From: Desulfococcus multivorans
GTDB lineage: Bacteria; Desulfobacterota; Desulfobacteria; Desulfobacterales; Desulfococcaceae
Assembly (NCBI RefSeq): GCF_001854245.1
Contig: NZ_CP015381.1
Location: 4,189,001-4,253,000, forward strand
Reading direction: 5' to 3'
Length of the DNA stretch: 64,000 nucleotides
The notes under the pieces are model-generated. The model ran no database searches. It was given only the letters and a program-made list of their open reading frames with translations, and was not told where the DNA came from. Positions within the stretch are counted from its first letter, which is position 1. Each line of letters starts with the position of its first letter. Below are positions 54,641 through 61,278 of the stretch, piece after piece. The position numbers and the translations under genes are program-made.

Positions 54641-57600
54641 TCACCCACCGCGCCTGTTTTCTTCAAACATATCCACCGGCATTGGATACCGCAGACGCCA
54701 AACCATCTTGATCGGTCTTTCGCTCTCATAGCTCACCCGCTCCGCCGGCCCAAGGAACATAAAGGGCACGGTACAGCCGTTACGTTTCTTCTGGTCGCGG
54801 GCAAAGATGAGAATGGTGTAACCCCGTGGCTGGTGGTTAACCAGGTTCTGCCCGGTATTCGATTGCCGGCTGGTTTGCGATTGAGACTCCCAATGCAGCA
54901 GTTCCCGGCTGATGGGATAGTCAGCATACATGGTGCTTGGGGAGAATTCCTTTTCGGTCTTCTGAAAGGTGATCAACAGGGCATAGACCTTTTTGTCCGG
55001 GAAATGAAGAACGCCGACGCCCGTCTGTCCCGCACGGCTCAAGTCTGCCATACCAAGAGCCGCCTTTATGTCCTTGAAACCATACCGTGCATGCAGTTCG
55101 AGCAAACAGGCAAACGGCAATTCCGGCTTGATGCCGCCTGCCGCGGTCTCCTCCTTGGCCCAGTCAAGGATTTCTACCAGATCGTTGAGAATGGTGGGAT
55201 TCCGGCTCAGCCGGTGAAACGATTCCGCCAGGGAATGAATACCGAGGCGCGGTCCAGTCTCGGCCCACAGCCGGTAATGGATGAAAAGAATGGCGTCTCC
55301 AGCCGTCTGCAAAGCGGCATTTATCTGCCCTTGCGCCAATAATCGGATGACGTCTTTCAACCGTTTGATCTCGTCCGGACCGTTGATGAAGGTTGCCCGC
55401 ACCAAGGCCTTTTTCAAAACAGCAAGATCCGGATCGGCCGGAACCGGTGTCAATTGCGCCTTTGCCTTCCAGCCGCTCCAGCTTTCGGCTACCAGCAACC
55501 GCTCGGGTTCATAATCATGATAGCGCACGAAATTGCCGAAGGTGGGTTTCCGGCCTGTCTCCACAGTGAAAGTCTGTAAGCGCTCTGGAACCTGGGCGGC
55601 AAGATTGCGCAGATTGGCCCGGATATTCTCCAGCACATATTGCCGGGACTGCCGATCGAGCTGGATCGAACAGCCGGCCGGAAGATGAGGGAAATCGCTT
55701 TCGACCTCGCGGTCAATGGCATAACGGTGTCTTGGCAGCAGTGCCTTGAGCTTGCTGTCCATACGATAATGCCGGTGCACCTGGCCGACAAAATCGAGTA
55801 CTGTAAGACATTCCTTGCCGGGTGCATGCCGCAGCCCCCGGCCAAGCTGCTGGAGGAAAACAGTCAGACTTTCAGTGGGTCGCAGGAACAGAACCACGTT
55901 CAAAGTCGGCAGGTCCACGCCTTCACTCAGCTTGTCAACGGTAAACAGAAAGGCAAGACGGCCGGATTTCAGGTTATCGAGCAAAACGGCACAGTCGGCG
56001 CTGCCCACGTCGGAGACAAAGGCGGCTGACGGGATGCCCCGTTTTCTGAACATCTCGGCCATGAATCGCGCGTGTTTGATGGAGACGCAGAAACCCACCC
56101 CTTTGACCGTTTCCAGGTCCGATTCGTATCGTTCAAGGGCAGCCAGCACGACATCGAGACGCTGCCTGGCCTGGATGTGGGAGCCGGTATAAACCTTTTC
56201 CAACGCATTTTCGTCATAGCGGCCGTATCTCCAGAAACGGTCTTCACTGATCGCCACCGGATCGGCCACCCCGAAGTAATGGAATGGGCAGAGCAGTTTC
56301 TCCTCCAGGGCCTCGGGAAGCCGTATTTCAGCGGCAAACCGATTACCGAAGTCGGCAGCGACATTGCCGCCGTCCATCCGCTCCGGGGTTGCCGTCAAAC
56401 CCAGCAATATCTCCGGGGAAAAATGTTCGAAGAGCGGTCGGTAACTTGCAGCGGTGCCGTGATGTACCTCGTCAATGACGATATAGTCGTAGAAATCGCG
56501 GCCGACCTGTTCCCATAACCGGCGGCTCGTGAGCATCCCCACCGAACAGAACAGGTGGTCCAACCGTTCCGGCCGATAGGGGCCGGACAGCAGTTCGCCG
56601 AAGTTGTGGTCCCGGACCACGTTGCGGAAGGTTGCCAGGGCCTGCTGAAGGATTTCCTGGCGGTGAGCAATGAACAGCAGGCGGGCCTGCTGCTTTTTGA
56701 ATTCCCTGAACCGTTTGTAATCAAAAGCCGCGATCACCGTCTTGCCGGTACCGGTAGCGGCGATCACCAGGTTCCGATATTGGCTGCGGATGACACGCTC
56801 CCTTTCCAGGGCTTCCAGAATGCGTTCCTGAAAAGGGTGAGGGCGTAGATCAAAAAAGACGGCGGCTTGTTGGGTGCCGATGTTGCGGGCCTGGGCAATC
56901 GCCTGGCGGAAGGGGTTGGGGTTGCCGGGATCGAAAGGGATGAATTCACGGCTGTTCCAATAGGTCTCAAACTCGGCACTGAACTTTTCAAGGATATGGA
57001 TCATATCCTGAGCGGTTACCTTCAGGTTCCATTCCAGGCCGCTGGTCATCGCTGCATGGGCCATGTTGGCCGAACCGATATAGCCGGTGGAAAAACCGGA
57101 GAGCCGCTTGAAATGATAGGCCTTGGCATGGAGTCTGGTCCGGTTGGTGTCATAGGAAATCCGCACCCGAACATTGGGCATGGCCGCCAGCCATTCCACT
57201 GCCGGCGCGTCGGAGGCGCCCATATAGGAGGTCGTGATGATCCGGACCGGCACACCGCGTTCCCGCAGATCCTCGAATCCCGGCATCAGCAATCGCAGGC
57301 CGGACCATTTGATAAATGAGATCAGGATATCGACCTCGTCGGCAGAGCGCATCTCCTCCAACAGCTCATGCACCAGCTGCGGCTCCCTGGAGGAACCGGT
57401 AAAGAGGCTGCTTTCAACAATGGAGGTCTGGGGTCGAGGGATACCGGGCCGACCATAATGCGGTGGTGTGACTTCAAGGAGCAGAGACTTAGGGGCGACA
57501 ACCAGTTTATGATTATGCAGATGGCCTATTCCAGCCTTATCCGCCAACATCCCGATGATGCGGTTGCAAAGCGCCAATCGCTTCCCGGGGTCAGCCTCGC

Positions 57601-57775
57601 AGCGCAGGGCCTGTTCAAGAATCTTTGCCACAAAGGCGGCGTAGCGCGCCGGTTGTTCCTCGCTGTCGATCTTCTCAAGAACGGCTCGCAACTCGGGGTT
57701 TGCGGCCAGGATTTTCTGCAGGGCACTATCCAGCAGGGCATCGTAAAGGCCTGGGGCAGGCGGCGTATGCGTCAT
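54641..57775 (-). CDS. PLD-domain superfamily-2 helicase with DUF3427, 1044 aa
   Basis: ATG 57775 (MTHTPPAPGLYDALLDSALQ) has GGAG upstream and follows the Nudix stop by one base. Residues 120-280 form a PLD domain with RLHAKAYHFKR (HxK, H216/K218) and GSANMAHAAM. Helicase motifs follow: ATGTGKT 340-346, DEVHHG 435-440, LGLTATPERMDG, VGFCVSIKHARFM, LFTVDKLSEGVDLP and QQLGRGLRHAPGKE. The C-terminal third is the DUF3427 domain. Such fusions are found with Nudix partners and in defence islands. Probable DNA helicase/nuclease-type protein; defence role inferred from context. Confidence 0.85.
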   Translation of the reverse strand: MTHTPPAPGLYDALLDSALQKILAANPELRAVLEKIDSEEQPARYAAFVAKILEQALRCEADPGKRLALCNRIIGMLADKAGIGHLHNHKLVVAPKSLLLEVTPPHYGRPGIPRPQTSIVESSLFTGSSREPQLVHELLEEMRSADEVDILISFIKWSGLRLLMPGFEDLRERGVPVRIITTSYMGASDAPAVEWLAAMPNVRVRISYDTNRTRLHAKAYHFKRLSGFSTGYIGSANMAHAAMTSGLEWNLKVTAQDMIHILEKFSAEFETYWNSREFIPFDPGNPNPFRQAIAQARNIGTQQAAVFFDLRPHPFQERILEALERERVIRSQYRNLVIAATGTGKTVIAAFDYKRFREFKKQQARLLFIAHRQEILQQALATFRNVVRDHNFGELLSGPYRPERLDHLFCSVGMLTSRRLWEQVGRDFYDYIVIDEVHHGTAASYRPLFEHFSPEILLGLTATPERMDGGNVAADFGNRFAAEIRLPEALEEKLLCPFHYFGVADPVAISEDRFWRYGRYDENALEKVYTGSHIQARQRLDVVLAALERYESDLETVKGVGFCVSIKHARFMAEMFRKRGIPSAAFVSDVGSADCAVLLDNLKSGRLAFLFTVDKLSEGVDLPTLNVVLFLRPTESLTVFLQQLGRGLRHAPGKECLTVLDFVGQVHRHYRMDSKLKALLPRHRYAIDREVESDFPHLPAGCSIQLDRQSRQYVLENIRANLRNLAAQVPERLQTFTVETGRKPTFGNFVRYHDYEPERLLVAESWSGWKAKAQLTPVPADPDLAVLKKALVRATFINGPDEIKRLKDVIRLLAQGQINAALQTAGDAILFIHYRLWAETGPRLGIHSLAESFHRLSRNPTILNDLVEILDWAKEETAAGGIKPELPFACLLELHARYGFKDIKAALGMADLSRAGQTGVGVLHFPDKKVYALLITFQKTEKEFSPSTMYADYPISRELLHWESQSQTSRQSNTGQNLVNHQPRGYTILIFARDQKKRNGCTVPFMFLGPAERVSYESERPIKMVWRLRYPMPVDMFEENRRGG

Positions 57776-57776
57776 T

Positions 57777-58184
57777 TCATCTCCGCAGCCGGCAATATTC
57801 GGCCAGTACGGGCATGTCGGCCTCAGCCCAGTCCAGGGTGTGGAGCTGATCCAGAGGGAGCCATTGCAGGGCGGCATGTTCGAGCGGCACCGGCTCTTCC
57901 TTCCTCAGGTAACAGATAAACGGGTACAGGGTCACCGTTACGGAAGGATACCGATGTGTAGACGGCTTGAGGGGGCCGGCAATGACAACGTTCACACCCA
58001 TCTCTTCGTCTATTTCCCGGATAAGACACGCTTCCGGAGATTCGCCCTGACGGATCTTTCCGCCGGGAAATTCCCATTTCAACGGAAGACTCATGGTGTC
58101 GCTGCGCTGAGCGGCAAGCACAAGCTCGTCACGCTCGATGATAGCACACGTCACGTGAATATGTTGTCCGGTCACTTTAGGCAT
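57777..58184 (-). CDS. Nudix hydrolase (MutT-like), 135 aa
   Basis: ATG 58184 (MPKVTGQHIHVTCAIIERDE) has AGGTGGGGA upstream. The Nudix box GKIRQGESPEACLIREIDEEMGV lies at 42-64 and matches G-x5-E-x7-R-E-U-x-E-E-x-G-U. LAAQRSDTMSLPLKWEFPGG and the later AALQWLPLDQLHTLDW are MutT-typical, suggesting (d)NTP or 8-oxo-dGTP hydrolysis. It is the first of a two-gene unit with the PLD helicase. Confidence 0.85.
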   Translation of the reverse strand: MPKVTGQHIHVTCAIIERDELVLAAQRSDTMSLPLKWEFPGGKIRQGESPEACLIREIDEEMGVNVVIAGPLKPSTHRYPSVTVTLYPFICYLRKEEPVPLEHAALQWLPLDQLHTLDWAEADMPVLAEYCRLRR

Positions 58185-58515
58185 TCCCCACCTGAACATG
58201 CTGCTGCGGCCGTGGTGCTTCAGCTTCAAAAAAGTCATAGTCCCGGAAAGTCTGCAATCCGGCGGCTTCTCGCACGGTCAGGCCGCGACAATACATTTCG
58301 CCAATACCGTTATGGTACTGTTACAAAATCATACCGCAAGTCGGACCGCTTTTCCAGGGTCAAGCCCTACGAATCCTGAAAAACATTGACCGAAACGGCC
58401 GGGGACCTGTTCGATCCGGTTCGACAGTTCAAGCCGTCCGATGATATCGCCGGCATGCACACGTTCAAACGGCTCATCAGGAATCTTCGTTGGATAGATA
58501 TGGCAGGGATAGTCG

Positions 58516-58668
58516 TCACCTCCGATCGCAGCAGCAGCTCGCAGTTCGGGGCGTTGAACGAAAGTCGGTGAAGATTTTGAAATCACCCCCGGCGTCATAC
58601 CAGATCACAATGCAGCGGTCGTTCAGCAGGTCGATCAGTTTCTTATGAAGAAAGGCGGTGAATTTCAT
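58516..58668 (-). pseudogene. PglZ-like gene remnant (BREX), N-terminal 50 residues
   Basis: ATG 58668 reads MKFTAFLHKKLIDLLNDRCI then VIWYDAGGDFKIFTDF, the pattern with which PglZ-type BREX proteins begin. The frame then breaks near 58550 and a neighbouring frame gives NAPNCELLL, as in a longer homologue. Nothing further of the gene follows. GAGGACGC precedes the ATG. A dead remnant; recognition rests on about 50 residues. Confidence 0.5.
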
Positions 58669-58745: not shown

Positions 58746-59360
58746 TCATCGAATCACCGTTCCTCCGCAAATGGTCAGAATTGTATTGATAAAAGACTTC
58801 AGTTCCGTGCATTGGTTGATCGCCGTCGATAAATCGTTTTCACGAAGAATTCGTGCCGCATCGCGGGGCTTGACATAGCGGTCTCTGCATTTGCCGATCT
58901 CGAAAATATCCCGGATTCGATGTGCCGGCGGATTATGATGATTCACCGTCTCGGGGTTGCCGCCGGGTGCAGCCCTGTTGTGCTTCGCCAATTTTTGAAT
59001 TGTGGGCCAGTAAGGCAAGAGCCATGCCTCGAAATCATATTGAGCGGCATGGGGATGAAAACGCGGTTCATTTCCCACCCATTGCCTCATTTTGGTTTTG
59101 GCGTCTTGTGCATTGGTGAAATCGGGAGGGGTTGTGCCGGTGTAGACATCCGTCAGTGCAATCACATGGTCCGCGGGTTTTCTTCCTCCCAAAAGGTTTT
59201 CCACAACCCGTCTTAATTTATCTTCTTTAGGGATTCGGCCGTCGTAGGGAAAAACATCCAACTTGGGATTGTCGCCGGTCAGACGGTTTTTCAAAAAATT
59301 CCGGAGATACGGAATAAACGCCTTTTCGGTTTTGCCCTCGACGATGATGGATATTTTCAT
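58746..59360 (-). CDS. DUF4276 protein (TOPRIM-like), partner of the AAA ATPase
   Basis: ATG 59360 overlaps the ATPase stop (ATGA). MKISIIVEGKTEKAFIPYLR has the EGxTE motif of TOPRIM-like and OLD-type nuclease domains, followed by VIALTDVYTGTTPPDF (DVY acidic pair) and FHPHAAQYDFEAWLLPYW. This is the DUF4276 signature. AAA ATPase/DUF4276 pairs resemble AbiL, PARIS and OLD-like defence pairs; the toxin or nuclease role here is inferred. 204 aa, apparently complete. Confidence 0.82.
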   Translation of the reverse strand: MKISIIVEGKTEKAFIPYLRNFLKNRLTGDNPKLDVFPYDGRIPKEDKLRRVVENLLGGRKPADHVIALTDVYTGTTPPDFTNAQDAKTKMRQWVGNEPRFHPHAAQYDFEAWLLPYWPTIQKLAKHNRAAPGGNPETVNHHNPPAHRIRDIFEIGKCRDRYVKPRDAARILRENDLSTAINQCTELKSFINTILTICGGTVIR

Positions 59361-60505
59361 GACCGGCCCCCCATCCGCCCCATTCGCCATACTTCGTCAA
59401 GACTGTACTCGGCCAGCCATTGGTCAAGATCCATTGAATCGGCCCATGTCGCTGTCGCACAGCCATCATCATCAACATCCATGACCACCACCTCATCCGG
59501 ATTCAAAAACCGGATAAAACGGTCGGAATGGGTGGCCACGATCAACTGGGTTCTCTTGGACGCCTCCCGCATCAAATCGGCGAGCAGGCTCAATAATTCC
59601 GGGTGCAGGCTGACTTCCGGCTCGTCTATCATGGTGATCGTTGACAGGTTCGGGCTTTGAAGCAATGATACAAGCCAAAGGAAACGAAGCGTGCCTTCCG
59701 AAAGTTCATTCATGTAGATCGGCTTGTTGAATTGTTTGTCTTTCCAGGTCATCGCCAGCATGCCCGCCGCCACTGGCGGAAAGCTCAGTTCTTCGAAATC
59801 CTGAAAAGCCGCTCTAAGAGAATCTATAATAATTTCAAATCGTTCTCTGTCGACTTCACGCAGGTAATAAAGATAAGGTACCAGATCGCCACCGTCGGGT
59901 CCGGGCAATGTCGCCGGCTTCATGGGCTGGGGCATTTTAACCGGTGCTCGGGGCCCCACATCCAGCACGTGATACTGTGTGGCCGTCGCCAGAATACGCC
60001 GCAGCTCCTCCGGTTGCCGAAACATTTTCGGAACCTGCGAGAGTGATGTTTCCAAGGGGTTGTGTTCCCAATCGGGACGGACGAGACGGTTTTCCTCTGT
60101 TTCGTAGTATCGGATATCACCGTCCGACGATTCGATGTGTCGAAAAGGATTATTGAAGCCTTGCCGCTTCTGAGACAACAATTCCCTGGAGATGGAATAC
60201 CCTGTACCCTTTGGTGCAAGCCGCAGTTCATATTCAAGCGGCTCGTGACCGGGAACCGTCATATCCACAAGGAATGACAGATCTTCACTCTTGCCGCGGG
60301 TCAGAAGGTTCGCGATACCGCCGAATTGCGACAACATGCTGTTTAGATTGCTTGATGCCGAAGCGGACAGGATGGATAAGGCATCAAGAAAAGATGTCTT
60401 ACCGACCCCGTTTGCGCCGATCAACACCATAAACGGCCGCACCGGCAGGTCGACTTTCAGCAACCGCCTGAAACCGCCTATTTTAATCCGGTTAATTTTG
60501 TACAT
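59357..60505 (-). CDS. AAA (SMC/OLD-like, AAA_21) ATPase, 382 aa
   Basis: ATG 60505 (MYKINRIKIGGFRRLLKVDL) has AGGAGGA upstream. GANGVGKT (30-37) is Walker A. The long middle part contains helical and beta insertions. ELSEGTLRFLWLVSLL (signature), TITMIDEPEVSLHPELLSL (Walker B/D-loop) and LIVATHSDRFI (H-motif) complete an ABC-type ATPase, as in OLD and AAA_21 proteins. It is coupled to the DUF4276 gene and lies 15 bases after the pglX remnant, in the same direction. Confidence 0.85.
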   Translation of the reverse strand: MYKINRIKIGGFRRLLKVDLPVRPFMVLIGANGVGKTSFLDALSILSASASSNLNSMLSQFGGIANLLTRGKSEDLSFLVDMTVPGHEPLEYELRLAPKGTGYSISRELLSQKRQGFNNPFRHIESSDGDIRYYETEENRLVRPDWEHNPLETSLSQVPKMFRQPEELRRILATATQYHVLDVGPRAPVKMPQPMKPATLPGPDGGDLVPYLYYLREVDRERFEIIIDSLRAAFQDFEELSFPPVAAGMLAMTWKDKQFNKPIYMNELSEGTLRFLWLVSLLQSPNLSTITMIDEPEVSLHPELLSLLADLMREASKRTQLIVATHSDRFIRFLNPDEVVVMDVDDDGCATATWADSMDLDQWLAEYSLDEVWRMGRMGGRS

Positions 60506-60520
60506 TATATTCCTCCTGTA

Positions 60521-61278
60521 TCAGGATTTTTCCTTCTTATTGCGACGACTGCGGCCGCCTTTCTTCTTGGAAGCGGGCTTTTCCACCTCGCATAGCTCCT
60601 CAAGCCCATGTGCGATAGCGATGAAACGGTCCTTTTTACAGACGTCCCGCACCTGGTCGGGCCATATCGTGTAGGCGAGATGCGTCCGGTCATCGGCGCT
60701 CTTTTCCAATTTGTCCCAAACCTTTTTGGTGTCGTTCGCCCATGATCTCAGGTTGAAAAGACCGGTTAGCGGTGCGGCGTTGATGATCACGCCGTCGTTG
60801 AGGTCAGGTTTGCAGGGAGACGCCGCGATCCGAACCAGCTCCTCGGGCAGACACGAAGCTCACCGAGGAATGTCTGTGTTTCATTCAGCCGGTCGCGCAA
60901 CCGGGTCGCCTCTCGACCGGAAGCGGCTTTCAATTCTTCTTCGACATGGGCGAGGCCGCGCTTGATCTCGCTGATCTTGGGCTTGACGTGCTTGTTGACT
61001 GCGGCGTAGAGGGTCTGGTCGGTCAAACGGTGATGACAAATCCAGATGGTATAGGACCCCGAGGCCGTCGACAGCGGCCAGTAAATCGGGGCCTTGTGGC
61101 GGCCTTTGGAATAACGCTTCAAGTGATCCTGAAAGAACTTTGCGGGTTTGCGGAAATAGTCTCGAAGCTCGGAGACGCCGAGGATATCGCAGATTTCCAT
61201 CTCCATCTCGTAGGCTTTGTCCTTCCAGAGAATTTCTAAGACCTTGCGCACGCGACGGACGATATCGTCTCGGTGGGG
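60521..61278 (-). pseudogene. PglX (BREX methyltransferase) C-terminal remnant, frameshifted
   Basis: The minus strand from about 61278 reads DDIVRRVRKVLEILWKDKAY, FRKPAKFFQDHLKRYSKGRH, APIYWPLSTASGSYTIWICH and HRLTDQTLYAAVNK, which is the C-terminal part of BREX-type PglX. Near 60840-60860 the frame shifts by one; the next frame continues EELVRIAASPCKPDLNDGV and INAAPLTGLFNLRSWANDTK to its end at 60521, the known PglX C-terminus. The N-terminal methyltransferase domain is missing, truncated near 61278. Confidence 0.75.

What the first reader, a model, noticed from the sequence alone, without database searches (positions are those of the whole stretch)
54641..58184. PLD helicase-DUF3427 plus Nudix: candidate two-gene defence unit
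The Nudix stop and helicase start are one base apart, beside a decayed BREX locus. A nucleotide hydrolase with a nuclease-like helicase would suit phage defence through nucleotide or DNA damage sensing. I know the helicase type from defence neighbourhoods but not a proven function.
Basis: partly seen in the sequence, partly recalled or inferred. Interest (0 to 1): 0.6.

Follow-up and report, generated by a model that had tools for sequence, protein, structure and literature searches.

The report
SauUSI-type restriction enzyme with Nudix partner
Two adjacent bacterial genes encode a relative of a known enzyme that shreds DNA carrying chemically modified cytosines and a small enzyme that probably destroys modified DNA building blocks, which may be how a cell with such a cutter avoids cutting itself.

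Summary
The two genes are real, intact and one base apart. The 'PLD helicase-DUF3427' is a relative of SauUSI, the ATP-dependent Type IV restriction enzyme that cuts DNA with 5-methyl- or 5-hydroxymethylcytosine (best PDB sequence and fold match 7CLG; catalytic residues and the base-reading Asp/Trp kept). The Nudix protein's best fold match, 3GWY, is an assayed enzyme that hydrolyses 5-methyl-dCTP and the 5-hydroxymethyl form equally well. The pairing recurs: 37 of 71 evaluable helicases in a query-centred set and 11 of 15 in a survey of the host's phylum, but 0 of 14 in a second phylum; 0 of 37 control restriction loci had it. It includes S. aureus SauUSI, whose neighbour is the solved 'MutT' 5X1X. 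In a few loci a MazG-like pyrophosphohydrolase stands there too or instead. I propose that the Nudix clears 5-modified dCTP so that host DNA does not become a target of its own cutter (inferred, not shown). The adjacency was mentioned in passing in print; the searches listed found no explanation. The damage-sensing idea has no support here. No biochemistry was possible.

The parts
54641..57775 (-). SauUSI-like ATP-dependent modification-dependent (Type IV) restriction enzyme, 1044 aa: N-terminal extension (roughly 95 residues more than SauUSI), PLD nuclease (H216, K218, S235, N237), SF2 ATPase (K345, D435/E436, R646/R649), helical coupler, DUF3427/SRA-like reader (D952, W962)
   Evidence: Pfam, PADLOC mREase_IV 657 bits, PDB 7CLG, residue conservation in 76 homologues
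57777..58184 (-). Nudix pyrophosphohydrolase of the NudG/MutT2/3GWY kind, 135 aa; stop one base before the helicase ATG
   Evidence: Pfam NUDIX, PADLOC PDC-S07 154 bits, PDB matches, NudG-type Asp, AlphaFold2 pLDDT 91
58177..58317 (-). Probable C-terminal remnant of a C5-cytosine DNA methyltransferase (46 aa) whose reading frame overlaps the Nudix start codon
   Evidence: Reading frames; PF00145 positions 274-309, E 0.0027, 17.6 bits, under the 22-bit cut-off
60787..61251 (-). C-terminal remnant of BREX methyltransferase PglX (context, not part of the unit)
59357..60505 (-). AAA_21 ATPase, PADLOC HEC-01A (context)
58746..59390 (-). DUF4276 protein, PADLOC HEC-01B (context)

Best explanation
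The large protein is a SauUSI-type Type IV restriction enzyme: its C-terminal SRA-like domain binds DNA carrying 5-methyl- or 5-hydroxymethylcytosine, ATP-driven translocation follows, and the dimeric PLD nuclease shreds the DNA. The Nudix partner is a pyrophosphohydrolase that converts 5-modified dCTP (5-methyl- and 5-hydroxymethyl-dCTP) to the monophosphate. Such triphosphates can arise when phage-encoded kinases phosphorylate 5-modified dCMP during infection, or after restricted phage DNA is broken down. If they entered the host chromosome they would write the very mark the enzyme cuts, so making the Nudix together with the nuclease protects the host from its own restriction enzyme. Shown by sequence, fold and conservation: family of both proteins, intact active sites, repeated adjacency, co-divergence. 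Pure inference: the self-protection step.
For: (1) SauUSI kinship: PADLOC mREase_IV over residues 114-1037; 7CLG best in phmmer (E 8.3e-83) and Foldseek (3.6e-41); VIA-align Z 19.1 with rmsd 13.3 over 697 residues, the only listed match that spans 132-1041 (other helicases reach Z 18.7 over the ATPase alone); PLD, Walker, DExH and motif VI residues invariant in 76 of 76 homologues; equivalents of SauUSI D858 and W868 kept in 73 and 72 of 76 (pocket roles from passages of PMC7913695). (2) Nudix: Foldseek rank 1 is 3GWY, with 2RRK (E. coli Orf135/NudG) and 5ZRO (MutT2 bound to 5mdCTP) in the top 7 and E. coli MutT at rank 25; 3GWY is also the second-best PDB sequence match. 3GWY (Q5LBB1) was assayed: kcat/Km 4.8e6 for 5-Me-dCTP and 4.4e6 for 5-MeOH-dCTP (taken to be 5-hydroxymethyl), 50-fold less for 5-OH-dCTP, much less for canonical NTPs (passages, PMC5158307): the same two marks that SauUSI reads. 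NudG also prefers 5-methyl-dCTP. Asp at the NudG D118 position in 40 of 40 distinct linked Nudix where E. coli MutT has Asn. (3) Linkage: 37 of 71 evaluable distinct helicases; 11 of 15 in the phylum survey against 0 of 29 HsdR and 0 of 8 McrC loci (Fisher 2e-8 against all 37); includes S. aureus SauUSI's neighbour, identical over 130 of 130 residues to PDB 5X1X. In all 32 upstream pairs of the tree set an in-frame helicase start lies -14 to +9 nt from the Nudix stop, at -4 in 16 (the nearest start was chosen, which favours small values). (4) Order changes but adjacency stays: 32 upstream, 5 downstream. (5) Second fold: a MazG-like protein (PF12643) directly after the helicase in L098 and L110 and two genes before it in L036; in L116 directly after it by my own profile only. 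L116 and L036 lack the Nudix. PMC10742078 names Orf135 and the mammalian RS21-C6/DCTPP1 as 5-methyl-dCTP hydrolases, and phage kinases for 5-methyl- and 5-hydroxymethyl-dCMP (passages); that the mammalian ones are of the MazG kind is stated for DCTPP1 in an abstract (PMC4491611, listing).
Against: McrBC, also m5C-dependent, has none (0 of 8). The NudG-type Asp is general in this Nudix family, linked or not, and the linked Nudix are not one clade. SauUSI alone restricts when cloned in E. coli (passage, PMC3874153), though E. coli has its own nudG. DUF3427-bearing genomes are not depleted of C5-methyltransferase genes: 5 of 18 against 105 of 377. Some loci carry a C5-methyltransferase or Vsr beside the pair. 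NCBIfam equivalog cut-offs for NudG and MutT are not reached. Identity to 3GWY is only 34-37%.
Confidence: 0.5

Rival explanations
1. Same chemistry, other target: the Nudix starves the phage. By destroying the phage's 5-modified dCTP it forces ordinary cytosine into progeny DNA, which then falls to conventional restriction or BREX, while the SauUSI-like enzyme kills phages that stay modified: a pincer.
For: The nearest characterised Nudix act on 5-methyl- and 5-hydroxymethyl-dCTP; phage kinases make the precursors; the window lies among other defence genes. A 2025 review raises nucleotide-pool monitoring of 5hmdCTP as a possible way of phage detection (passage, PMC12707154).
Against: Does not by itself explain why the Nudix goes with SauUSI-type enzymes and was not found at 29 Type I loci, which would profit as much. 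A small constitutive Nudix may be too weak against a phage pool (inference).
Confidence: 0.2
2. Generic housekeeper: an ordinary MutT/NudG-type sanitiser (oxidised or other dNTPs) that travels with the restriction gene because it helps survival after DNA shredding or phage attack, with no link to cytosine marks.
For: Relatives at 50-64% identity stand away from any SauUSI-type gene in the same phylum, several among housekeeping genes; PADLOC's PDC-S07 label is reported in 99% of Enterobacter genomes (passage, PMC12851794); Vsr, a repair gene, is also a neighbour.
Against: 0 of 37 control loci (McrC, HsdR) carry one; start-stop overlap and MazG-like replacement point to a specific need; the nearest assayed relative is specific for 5-modified (d)CTP.
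Confidence: 0.17
3. Piece of a restriction-modification system: the unit once had a C5-cytosine methyltransferase (and Vsr) that marked self, and the enzyme spares or reads that mark; the Nudix cleans up methylated nucleotides from turnover of the host's own methylated DNA.
For: C5-methyltransferase C-terminal remnant whose frame overlaps the Nudix start in the window; L009 order C5-methyltransferase, DUF4928, Vsr, Nudix, helicase; truncated C5-methyltransferase before the L050 helicase; Vsr before the pair in L026, L045 (in two frames) and L056.
Against: My C5-methyltransferase profile found it beside 2 helicases only, plus the window remnant seen by eye (a seed-limited search that missed the remnant); L009's DUF4928 may be that methyltransferase's own nuclease (recalled); the own genome has no PF00145 match.
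Confidence: 0.1

Closest known systems
SauUSI of Staphylococcus aureus (Type IV, PDB 7CLG)
   Same: PLD nuclease, SF2 ATPase, coupler, DUF3427/SRA-like reader in one chain; catalytic and base-reading residues kept; Nudix gene immediately upstream
   Different: 27.9% identity over 61% of the window protein (tblastn to an S. aureus plasmid copy); roughly 95 more residues at the N-terminus; best PADLOC model is the other mREase_IV model; specificity untested
3GWY (Q5LBB1, Bacteroides fragilis), E. coli NudG (Orf135) and mycobacterial MutT2
   Same: Nudix fold and box; Asp at NudG 118 (NudG checked); top fold matches; 3GWY and NudG are assayed 5-methyl-dCTP hydrolases
   Different: 29-37% identity; NudG stands alone in the E. 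coli chromosome; activity of the window protein unknown; neighbours of the 3GWY gene not examined
S. aureus 'MutT' 5X1X
   Same: SauUSI's neighbour in S. aureus; best PDB sequence match of the window Nudix
   Different: No function attached to it in the passages I read; different phylum
PADLOC PDC-S07 (phage defence candidate)
   Same: The Nudix matches it at 154 bits
   Different: The label also fits a Nudix without a SauUSI-type neighbour (L155) and is near-universal in Enterobacter
SauUSI-MutT neighbours in Streptococcus (PMC7641849 Fig. 9 legend; PMC12813430, PDC-S07 with RM type IV)
   Same: The same adjacency, seen in passing
   Different: One genus or species; no mechanism and no link to 5-modified dCTP in what I read of them

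Membership tests
SauUSI-type Type IV restriction enzymes | PLD nuclease domain with HxK and the S/N of the second motif | tested here: met
   Pfam PLDc_2; H216, K218, S235, N237 invariant in 76 of 76
SauUSI-type Type IV restriction enzymes | SF2 ATPase with Walker A, DExH and motif VI arginines | tested here: met
SauUSI-type Type IV restriction enzymes | C-terminal DUF3427/SRA-like reader with base-contact Asp and stacking Trp | tested here: met
   DUF3427 E 1.5e-21; D952 and W962 align with SauUSI D858 and W868
SauUSI-type Type IV restriction enzymes | Whole-chain fold like 7CLG | tested here: met
   Top Foldseek and VIA-align match, 132-1041; model only moderate (pLDDT 73, pTM 0.45) and rmsd large, so domain order is met, arrangement not settled
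SauUSI-type Type IV restriction enzymes | Cuts DNA with m5C/hm5C, ATP-dependent, no cognate methyltransferase | not testable with these tools
   No PF00145 match in the own genome, but a probable C5-methyltransferase remnant upstream
NudG/MutT2/3GWY-like 5-modified-dCTP pyrophosphatases | Complete Nudix box and fold | tested here: met
NudG/MutT2/3GWY-like 5-modified-dCTP pyrophosphatases | Asp at NudG position 118 (MutT: Asn) | tested here: met
   not specific, most unlinked relatives have it too
NudG/MutT2/3GWY-like 5-modified-dCTP pyrophosphatases | Scores over the NCBIfam equivalog cut-off of NudG | tested here: not met
   NudG model 79.4 of 156 bits; MutT 70.3 of 97.9: so not filed as NudG or MutT itself
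NudG/MutT2/3GWY-like 5-modified-dCTP pyrophosphatases | Hydrolyses 5-methyl- or 5-hydroxymethyl-dCTP | not testable with these tools
   -
BREX | BREX core proteins among the two genes | tested here: not met
   Best matches are mREase_IV and PDC-S07; no BREX family within the E-value limit for either
CglI/NgoAVII-type R-M | Separate nuclease (R) and ATPase (H) subunits (definition from PMC7913695 passage) | tested here: not met
   Both domains are in one chain

The most novel reading that the evidence does not exclude
Modification-dependent restriction carries an autoimmunity problem at the level of nucleotides, and evolution has solved it by attaching a dedicated modified-dCTP pyrophosphohydrolase, of either the Nudix or the MazG kind, to SauUSI-type enzymes across phyla, SauUSI of S. 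aureus included. It would be the Type IV counterpart of the protective methyltransferase in R-M systems: self is kept unmarked by cleaning the pool, not by marking the DNA.
Probability: 0.38. Interest if true: 0.78.

Novelty: new variant of a known kind. Interest (0 to 1): 0.58.

Why it matters
SauUSI is described as a major barrier to foreign DNA in S. aureus and studied as a one-protein system; both it (7CLG) and its Nudix neighbour (5X1X) have solved structures, and nothing I read connects them functionally. The nearest assayed relative of the Nudix destroys exactly the two dCTP forms that would write SauUSI's target mark. If the Nudix is protection by pool hygiene, it answers how cells tolerate nucleases that read a base mark which phages can spread as free nucleotides, and gives a function to many 'MutT' genes. 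It is testable with two purified proteins and a laboratory E. coli strain.

Tried and rejected
Depletion of C5-methyltransferase genes in DUF3427 genomes: null, 5 of 18 (one of the 5, G072, a weak match) against 105 of 377, p = 1. Nudix beside another m5C-dependent enzyme, McrBC: 0 of 8 loci, against a general rule. The NudG-type Asp as a marker of linked Nudix: rejected, most unlinked relatives have it. A single clade of linked Nudix: not what the tree shows, 9 label changes, at least 3 forced by well supported branches; three changes may still be one gain and two losses. Viral contig scans with P0001 and the L. plantarum protein: none found. 'PglZ N-terminal remnant' near 58516-58668: recalled resemblance, no Pfam match, so not claimed.

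Rows left out and limits of the counts. Phylum survey: 18 of 395 genomes matched DUF3427; three with partial frames (G131, G171, G369) were left out of the 15; the Nudix of G394 is cut by a contig end. Second phylum: 19 of 288 genomes matched; 18 loci were fetched (all but G395) and 14 counted; left out were L225 (cut upstream), L236 (fragment), L237 (cut downstream) and L238 (under the cut-off, no HxK seen); none of these four shows a Nudix either; L224 has one 3 kb away; G395, known from L036, has MazG-like and no Nudix. Tree: two duplicate helicases dropped, five without flanks. Broken helicases L018, L092 and L110 have a Nudix beside them but are not in the counts. Controls: 29 HsdR loci, from the 30 top-ranked returned (66 of 118 genomes matched), and 8 of 9 McrC matches; at least five of the HsdR loci have under 500 nt upstream because of contig ends. 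The Nudix profile was built from linked Nudix; it also finds E. coli mutT and nudG, but three other Nudix loci of the own genome (L102, L104, L108) are absent from its filtered list, so distant Nudix can be missed in targets and controls alike.

After the filing check I re-read PMC5158307 for 3GWY. Its assay result was new to me and favourable; I raised the main odds from 0.45 to 0.50 and the novel case from 0.35 to 0.38, lowered the housekeeper rival from 0.20 to 0.17, and raised interest from 0.55 to 0.58. The second-phylum count was mended from 15 to 14. PMC11514479 lists PDC-S07 in two S. thermophilus strains; which systems it tested is shown in bold type that the text does not keep, so I cannot tell if PDC-S07 was tried.
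Full report
What is there. On the minus strand the window carries a 135-aa Nudix gene (57777-58184) and, one base further, a 1044-aa gene (54641-57775). Both frames are open and their motifs complete. Pfam gives NUDIX for the first and PLDc_2, ResIII, Helicase_C and DUF3427 for the second. The host is probably a member of the Thermodesulfobacteriota; this is inferred from the record titles of the nearest relatives, not told.

What the large protein is. PADLOC matches it over 114-1037 to a Type IV methyl-directed restriction enzyme model at 657 bits. The best solved relative by sequence is 7CLG, SauUSI (E 8.3e-83), and the predicted model finds 7CLG first as well (Foldseek E 3.6e-41; VIA-align Z 19.1, rmsd 13.3 over 697 residues, 132-1041). 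Other helicases come within one Z unit through the ATPase alone, but in the list only SauUSI spans the whole chain. The model is moderate (pLDDT 73, pTM 0.45), so domains agree while their arrangement is not settled. The papers say what SauUSI does: it needs ATP, cuts DNA holding m5C or hm5C in S-mC-N-G-S, reads the base with an SRA fold, and shreds DNA (passages of PMC7913695 and PMC3874153). In an alignment of 76 homologues the PLD, Walker, DExH and motif VI residues never vary, and the equivalents of SauUSI D858 and W868 are kept in 73 and 72. Roughly 95 N-terminal residues have no counterpart in the SauUSI alignment and stay unexplained.

What the small protein is. It belongs to a MutT-like Nudix group (PADLOC PDC-S07, 154 bits). 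By sequence its best PDB matches are 5X1X and 3GWY; by fold 3GWY, BdRppH, 2RRK (Orf135/NudG) and MutT2 with 5mdCTP come above E. coli MutT (within ranks 1-12 against 25; model pLDDT 91). 3GWY has been assayed: it hydrolyses 5-Me-dCTP and 5-MeOH-dCTP (which I take to be 5-hydroxymethyl-dCTP) with kcat/Km of 4.8e6 and 4.4e6 without telling them apart, 5-OH-dCTP 50-fold less well and canonical NTPs much less (passages of PMC5158307). NudG's reported best substrate there is 5-methyl-dCTP. At the position of NudG D118 and MutT N119 the window protein has Asp, as do all 40 distinct linked Nudix, but so do most unlinked relatives. It does not reach NCBIfam's cut-offs for NudG or MutT, so I call it NudG/MutT2/3GWY-like and no more.

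Is the pair real elsewhere? A Nudix profile was run over the open frames of 100 loci; apart from second matches of the same kind in L086 and L092 its hits lie directly beside a helicase. Of 76 distinct full-length helicases, 32 have the Nudix upstream, 5 downstream, 34 none (5 of them judged on the upstream side only), 5 cannot be judged. This set was gathered by similarity to the window protein and by plasmid and phage matches, so it is not even-handed. The fairer sample is the DUF3427 search of 395 genomes of the phylum: 18 matched, 15 with full-length frames, and 11 of these have the Nudix beside them. In the phylum of G395 (the genome of L036, titled Verrucomicrobia) 19 of 288 genomes matched and 0 of 14 loci with both flanks had one; one Verrucomicrobial locus from elsewhere, L049, does. 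Controls from the host's phylum, 8 McrC and 29 HsdR loci with several kilobases of flank (less at contig ends), had none. Where the Nudix is upstream, an in-frame helicase start lies -14 to +9 nt from its stop in 32 of 32, at -4 in 16 (nearest start taken). Distances of the two proteins rise together (Mantel r 0.885, 35 pairs, 0 of 2000 permutations as high; 0.86 for 27 pairs of the window clade), which fits transfer or descent as a unit.

It includes SauUSI. On an S. aureus record the Nudix (WP_000755954) ends where a SauUSI frame begins and is identical over 130 of 130 residues to 5X1X; that record's helicase frames are broken and it is annotated without them. L. plantarum, L. curvatus and Hymenobacter canadensis plasmids show full-length SauUSI-type genes with the same neighbour. 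Four of six fecal phage-labelled contigs have it just downstream.

Independent hints on function. The linked Nudix do not form one clade: G285 and G294 proteins group with E. coli NudG and unlinked genes, away from the window and S. aureus groups (few columns, many open forks). The arrangement flips. And in four loci a MazG-like protein takes part: directly after the helicase in L098 and L110 (PF12643) and in L116 (my profile only), and before an HNH_2 gene and the helicase in L036 (PF12643); L116 and L036 have no Nudix. No MazG-like gene was found in the 18 second-phylum loci or the 37 controls. PMC10742078 names Orf135 and the mammalian RS21-C6/DCTPP1 as enzymes highly specific for 5-methyl-dCTP, and phage kinases that phosphorylate 5-methyl- and 5-hydroxymethyl-dCMP (passage); an abstract calls DCTPP1 MazG-like (PMC4491611, listing). 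The title of PMC3855555 (listing) reports a mycobacterial MazG clearing 5-OH-dCTP. Two unrelated kinds of enzyme with a shared talent for modified dCTP beside one m5C-reading nuclease is, with the 3GWY assay, the strongest clue to function.

Mechanism proposed. Phages that modify cytosine make 5-modified dCTP; restricted DNA also returns 5-modified nucleotides. Incorporation into the chromosome would create targets for the resident nuclease. A co-made pyrophosphatase keeps the pool clean. The chemistry has support by kinship only; the purpose is inference. The same chemistry could instead starve the phage. A generic sanitiser is a live rival, since Nudix proteins 50-64% identical to the window's stand away from SauUSI-type genes, several of them among housekeeping genes, and PDC-S07 is reported in 99% of Enterobacter genomes (passage, PMC12851794).

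Results that do not fit. About half of the helicases do without it; one phylum almost wholly. McrBC has none. Genomes with DUF3427 are as likely to hold a C5-methyltransferase as others. A C5-methyltransferase or Vsr lies beside some pairs or helicases (L009, L026, L045, L056, L050, the window remnant), which suggests that some of these units live with host-made m5C, or sit next to a separate Type II system (L009 has DUF4928 between). This must be settled by cleavage assays.

What is known. The adjacency is mentioned in a figure legend for Streptococcus (PMC7641849, section 11 read), and S. suis PDC-S07 and RM type IV were co-localised in 23 of 23 (passages, PMC12813430); neither gives a mechanism, and nudix, SauUSI and mutT do not occur in the main text of the latter. 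Searches for SauUSI, DUF3427, nudix with type IV restriction, nudix with 5-methyl-dCTP and modification-dependent restriction, PDC-S07, 5-methyl-dCMP with salvage, SauUSI with mutT, and pool with autoimmunity showed no paper proposing this role, but I opened only 14 papers, mostly as passages; 20 of 52 SauUSI papers were listed, the two papers were not opened, the library is open-access only, and the original SauUSI paper was not held.

Verdict. Observation confirmed; interpretation partly right and now sharper. The helicase is a new member of a known family; the two-gene unit is a scarcely noticed variant whose partner gives a clean, testable idea.

Noticed in passing
window 58177-58317 (-): Probable C-terminal remnant of a C5-cytosine DNA methyltransferase whose frame overlaps the Nudix start codon; suggests a former methyltransferase-Nudix-helicase order.
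   Followed up: partly
window 58746-60505 (-): HEC-01A/B pair (AAA_21 ATPase and DUF4276) beside the BREX PglX remnant; both frames open.
   Followed up: no
own genome G000:C1:720141-720674 (L276): A PglZ-family gene with a 689-aa open frame far from the window, about 9 kb from an HsdR-like match at 729 kb: a possible second defence locus.
   Followed up: no
L036, L016, L017, L046, L048, L087, L049, L037, L042: A roughly 300-aa HNH_2-type protein (a reader-like N-terminal region is my impression) is a recurring neighbour of SauUSI-like genes, with or without a Nudix.
   Followed up: partly
L160 3669-7626 (genome G099): MazG-like, SLFN group 3 helicase, HNH_2 and a PDC-S07-type Nudix in a row with no SauUSI-like gene in the stretch: perhaps another modification-dependent nuclease with two dNTP pyrophosphohydrolases.
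   Followed up: partly
L155 3614-7299 (genome G202): A Nudix 55% identical to the window's overlaps by 4 bases a 1083-aa UvrD helicase with a PHP-like N-terminus (recalled, EndoQ-like).
   Followed up: no
L009, L026, L027, L045, L056, L075: Vsr mismatch endonuclease genes or pieces beside the SauUSI-like gene, mostly with the Nudix.
   Followed up: partly
L092 5508-12509 (S. aureus record NZ_CP077890): Two inverted copies of the Nudix with broken SauUSI-type frames on one short linear record; may be an assembly artefact.
   Followed up: no
PADLOC PDC-S07: The label fits Nudix genes with and without a SauUSI neighbour and is reported in 99% of Enterobacter genomes, so it probably overcounts defence.
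   Followed up: partly
L050 5288-5980: Truncated C5-methyltransferase overlapping the start of a SauUSI-like gene that has no Nudix.
   Followed up: no
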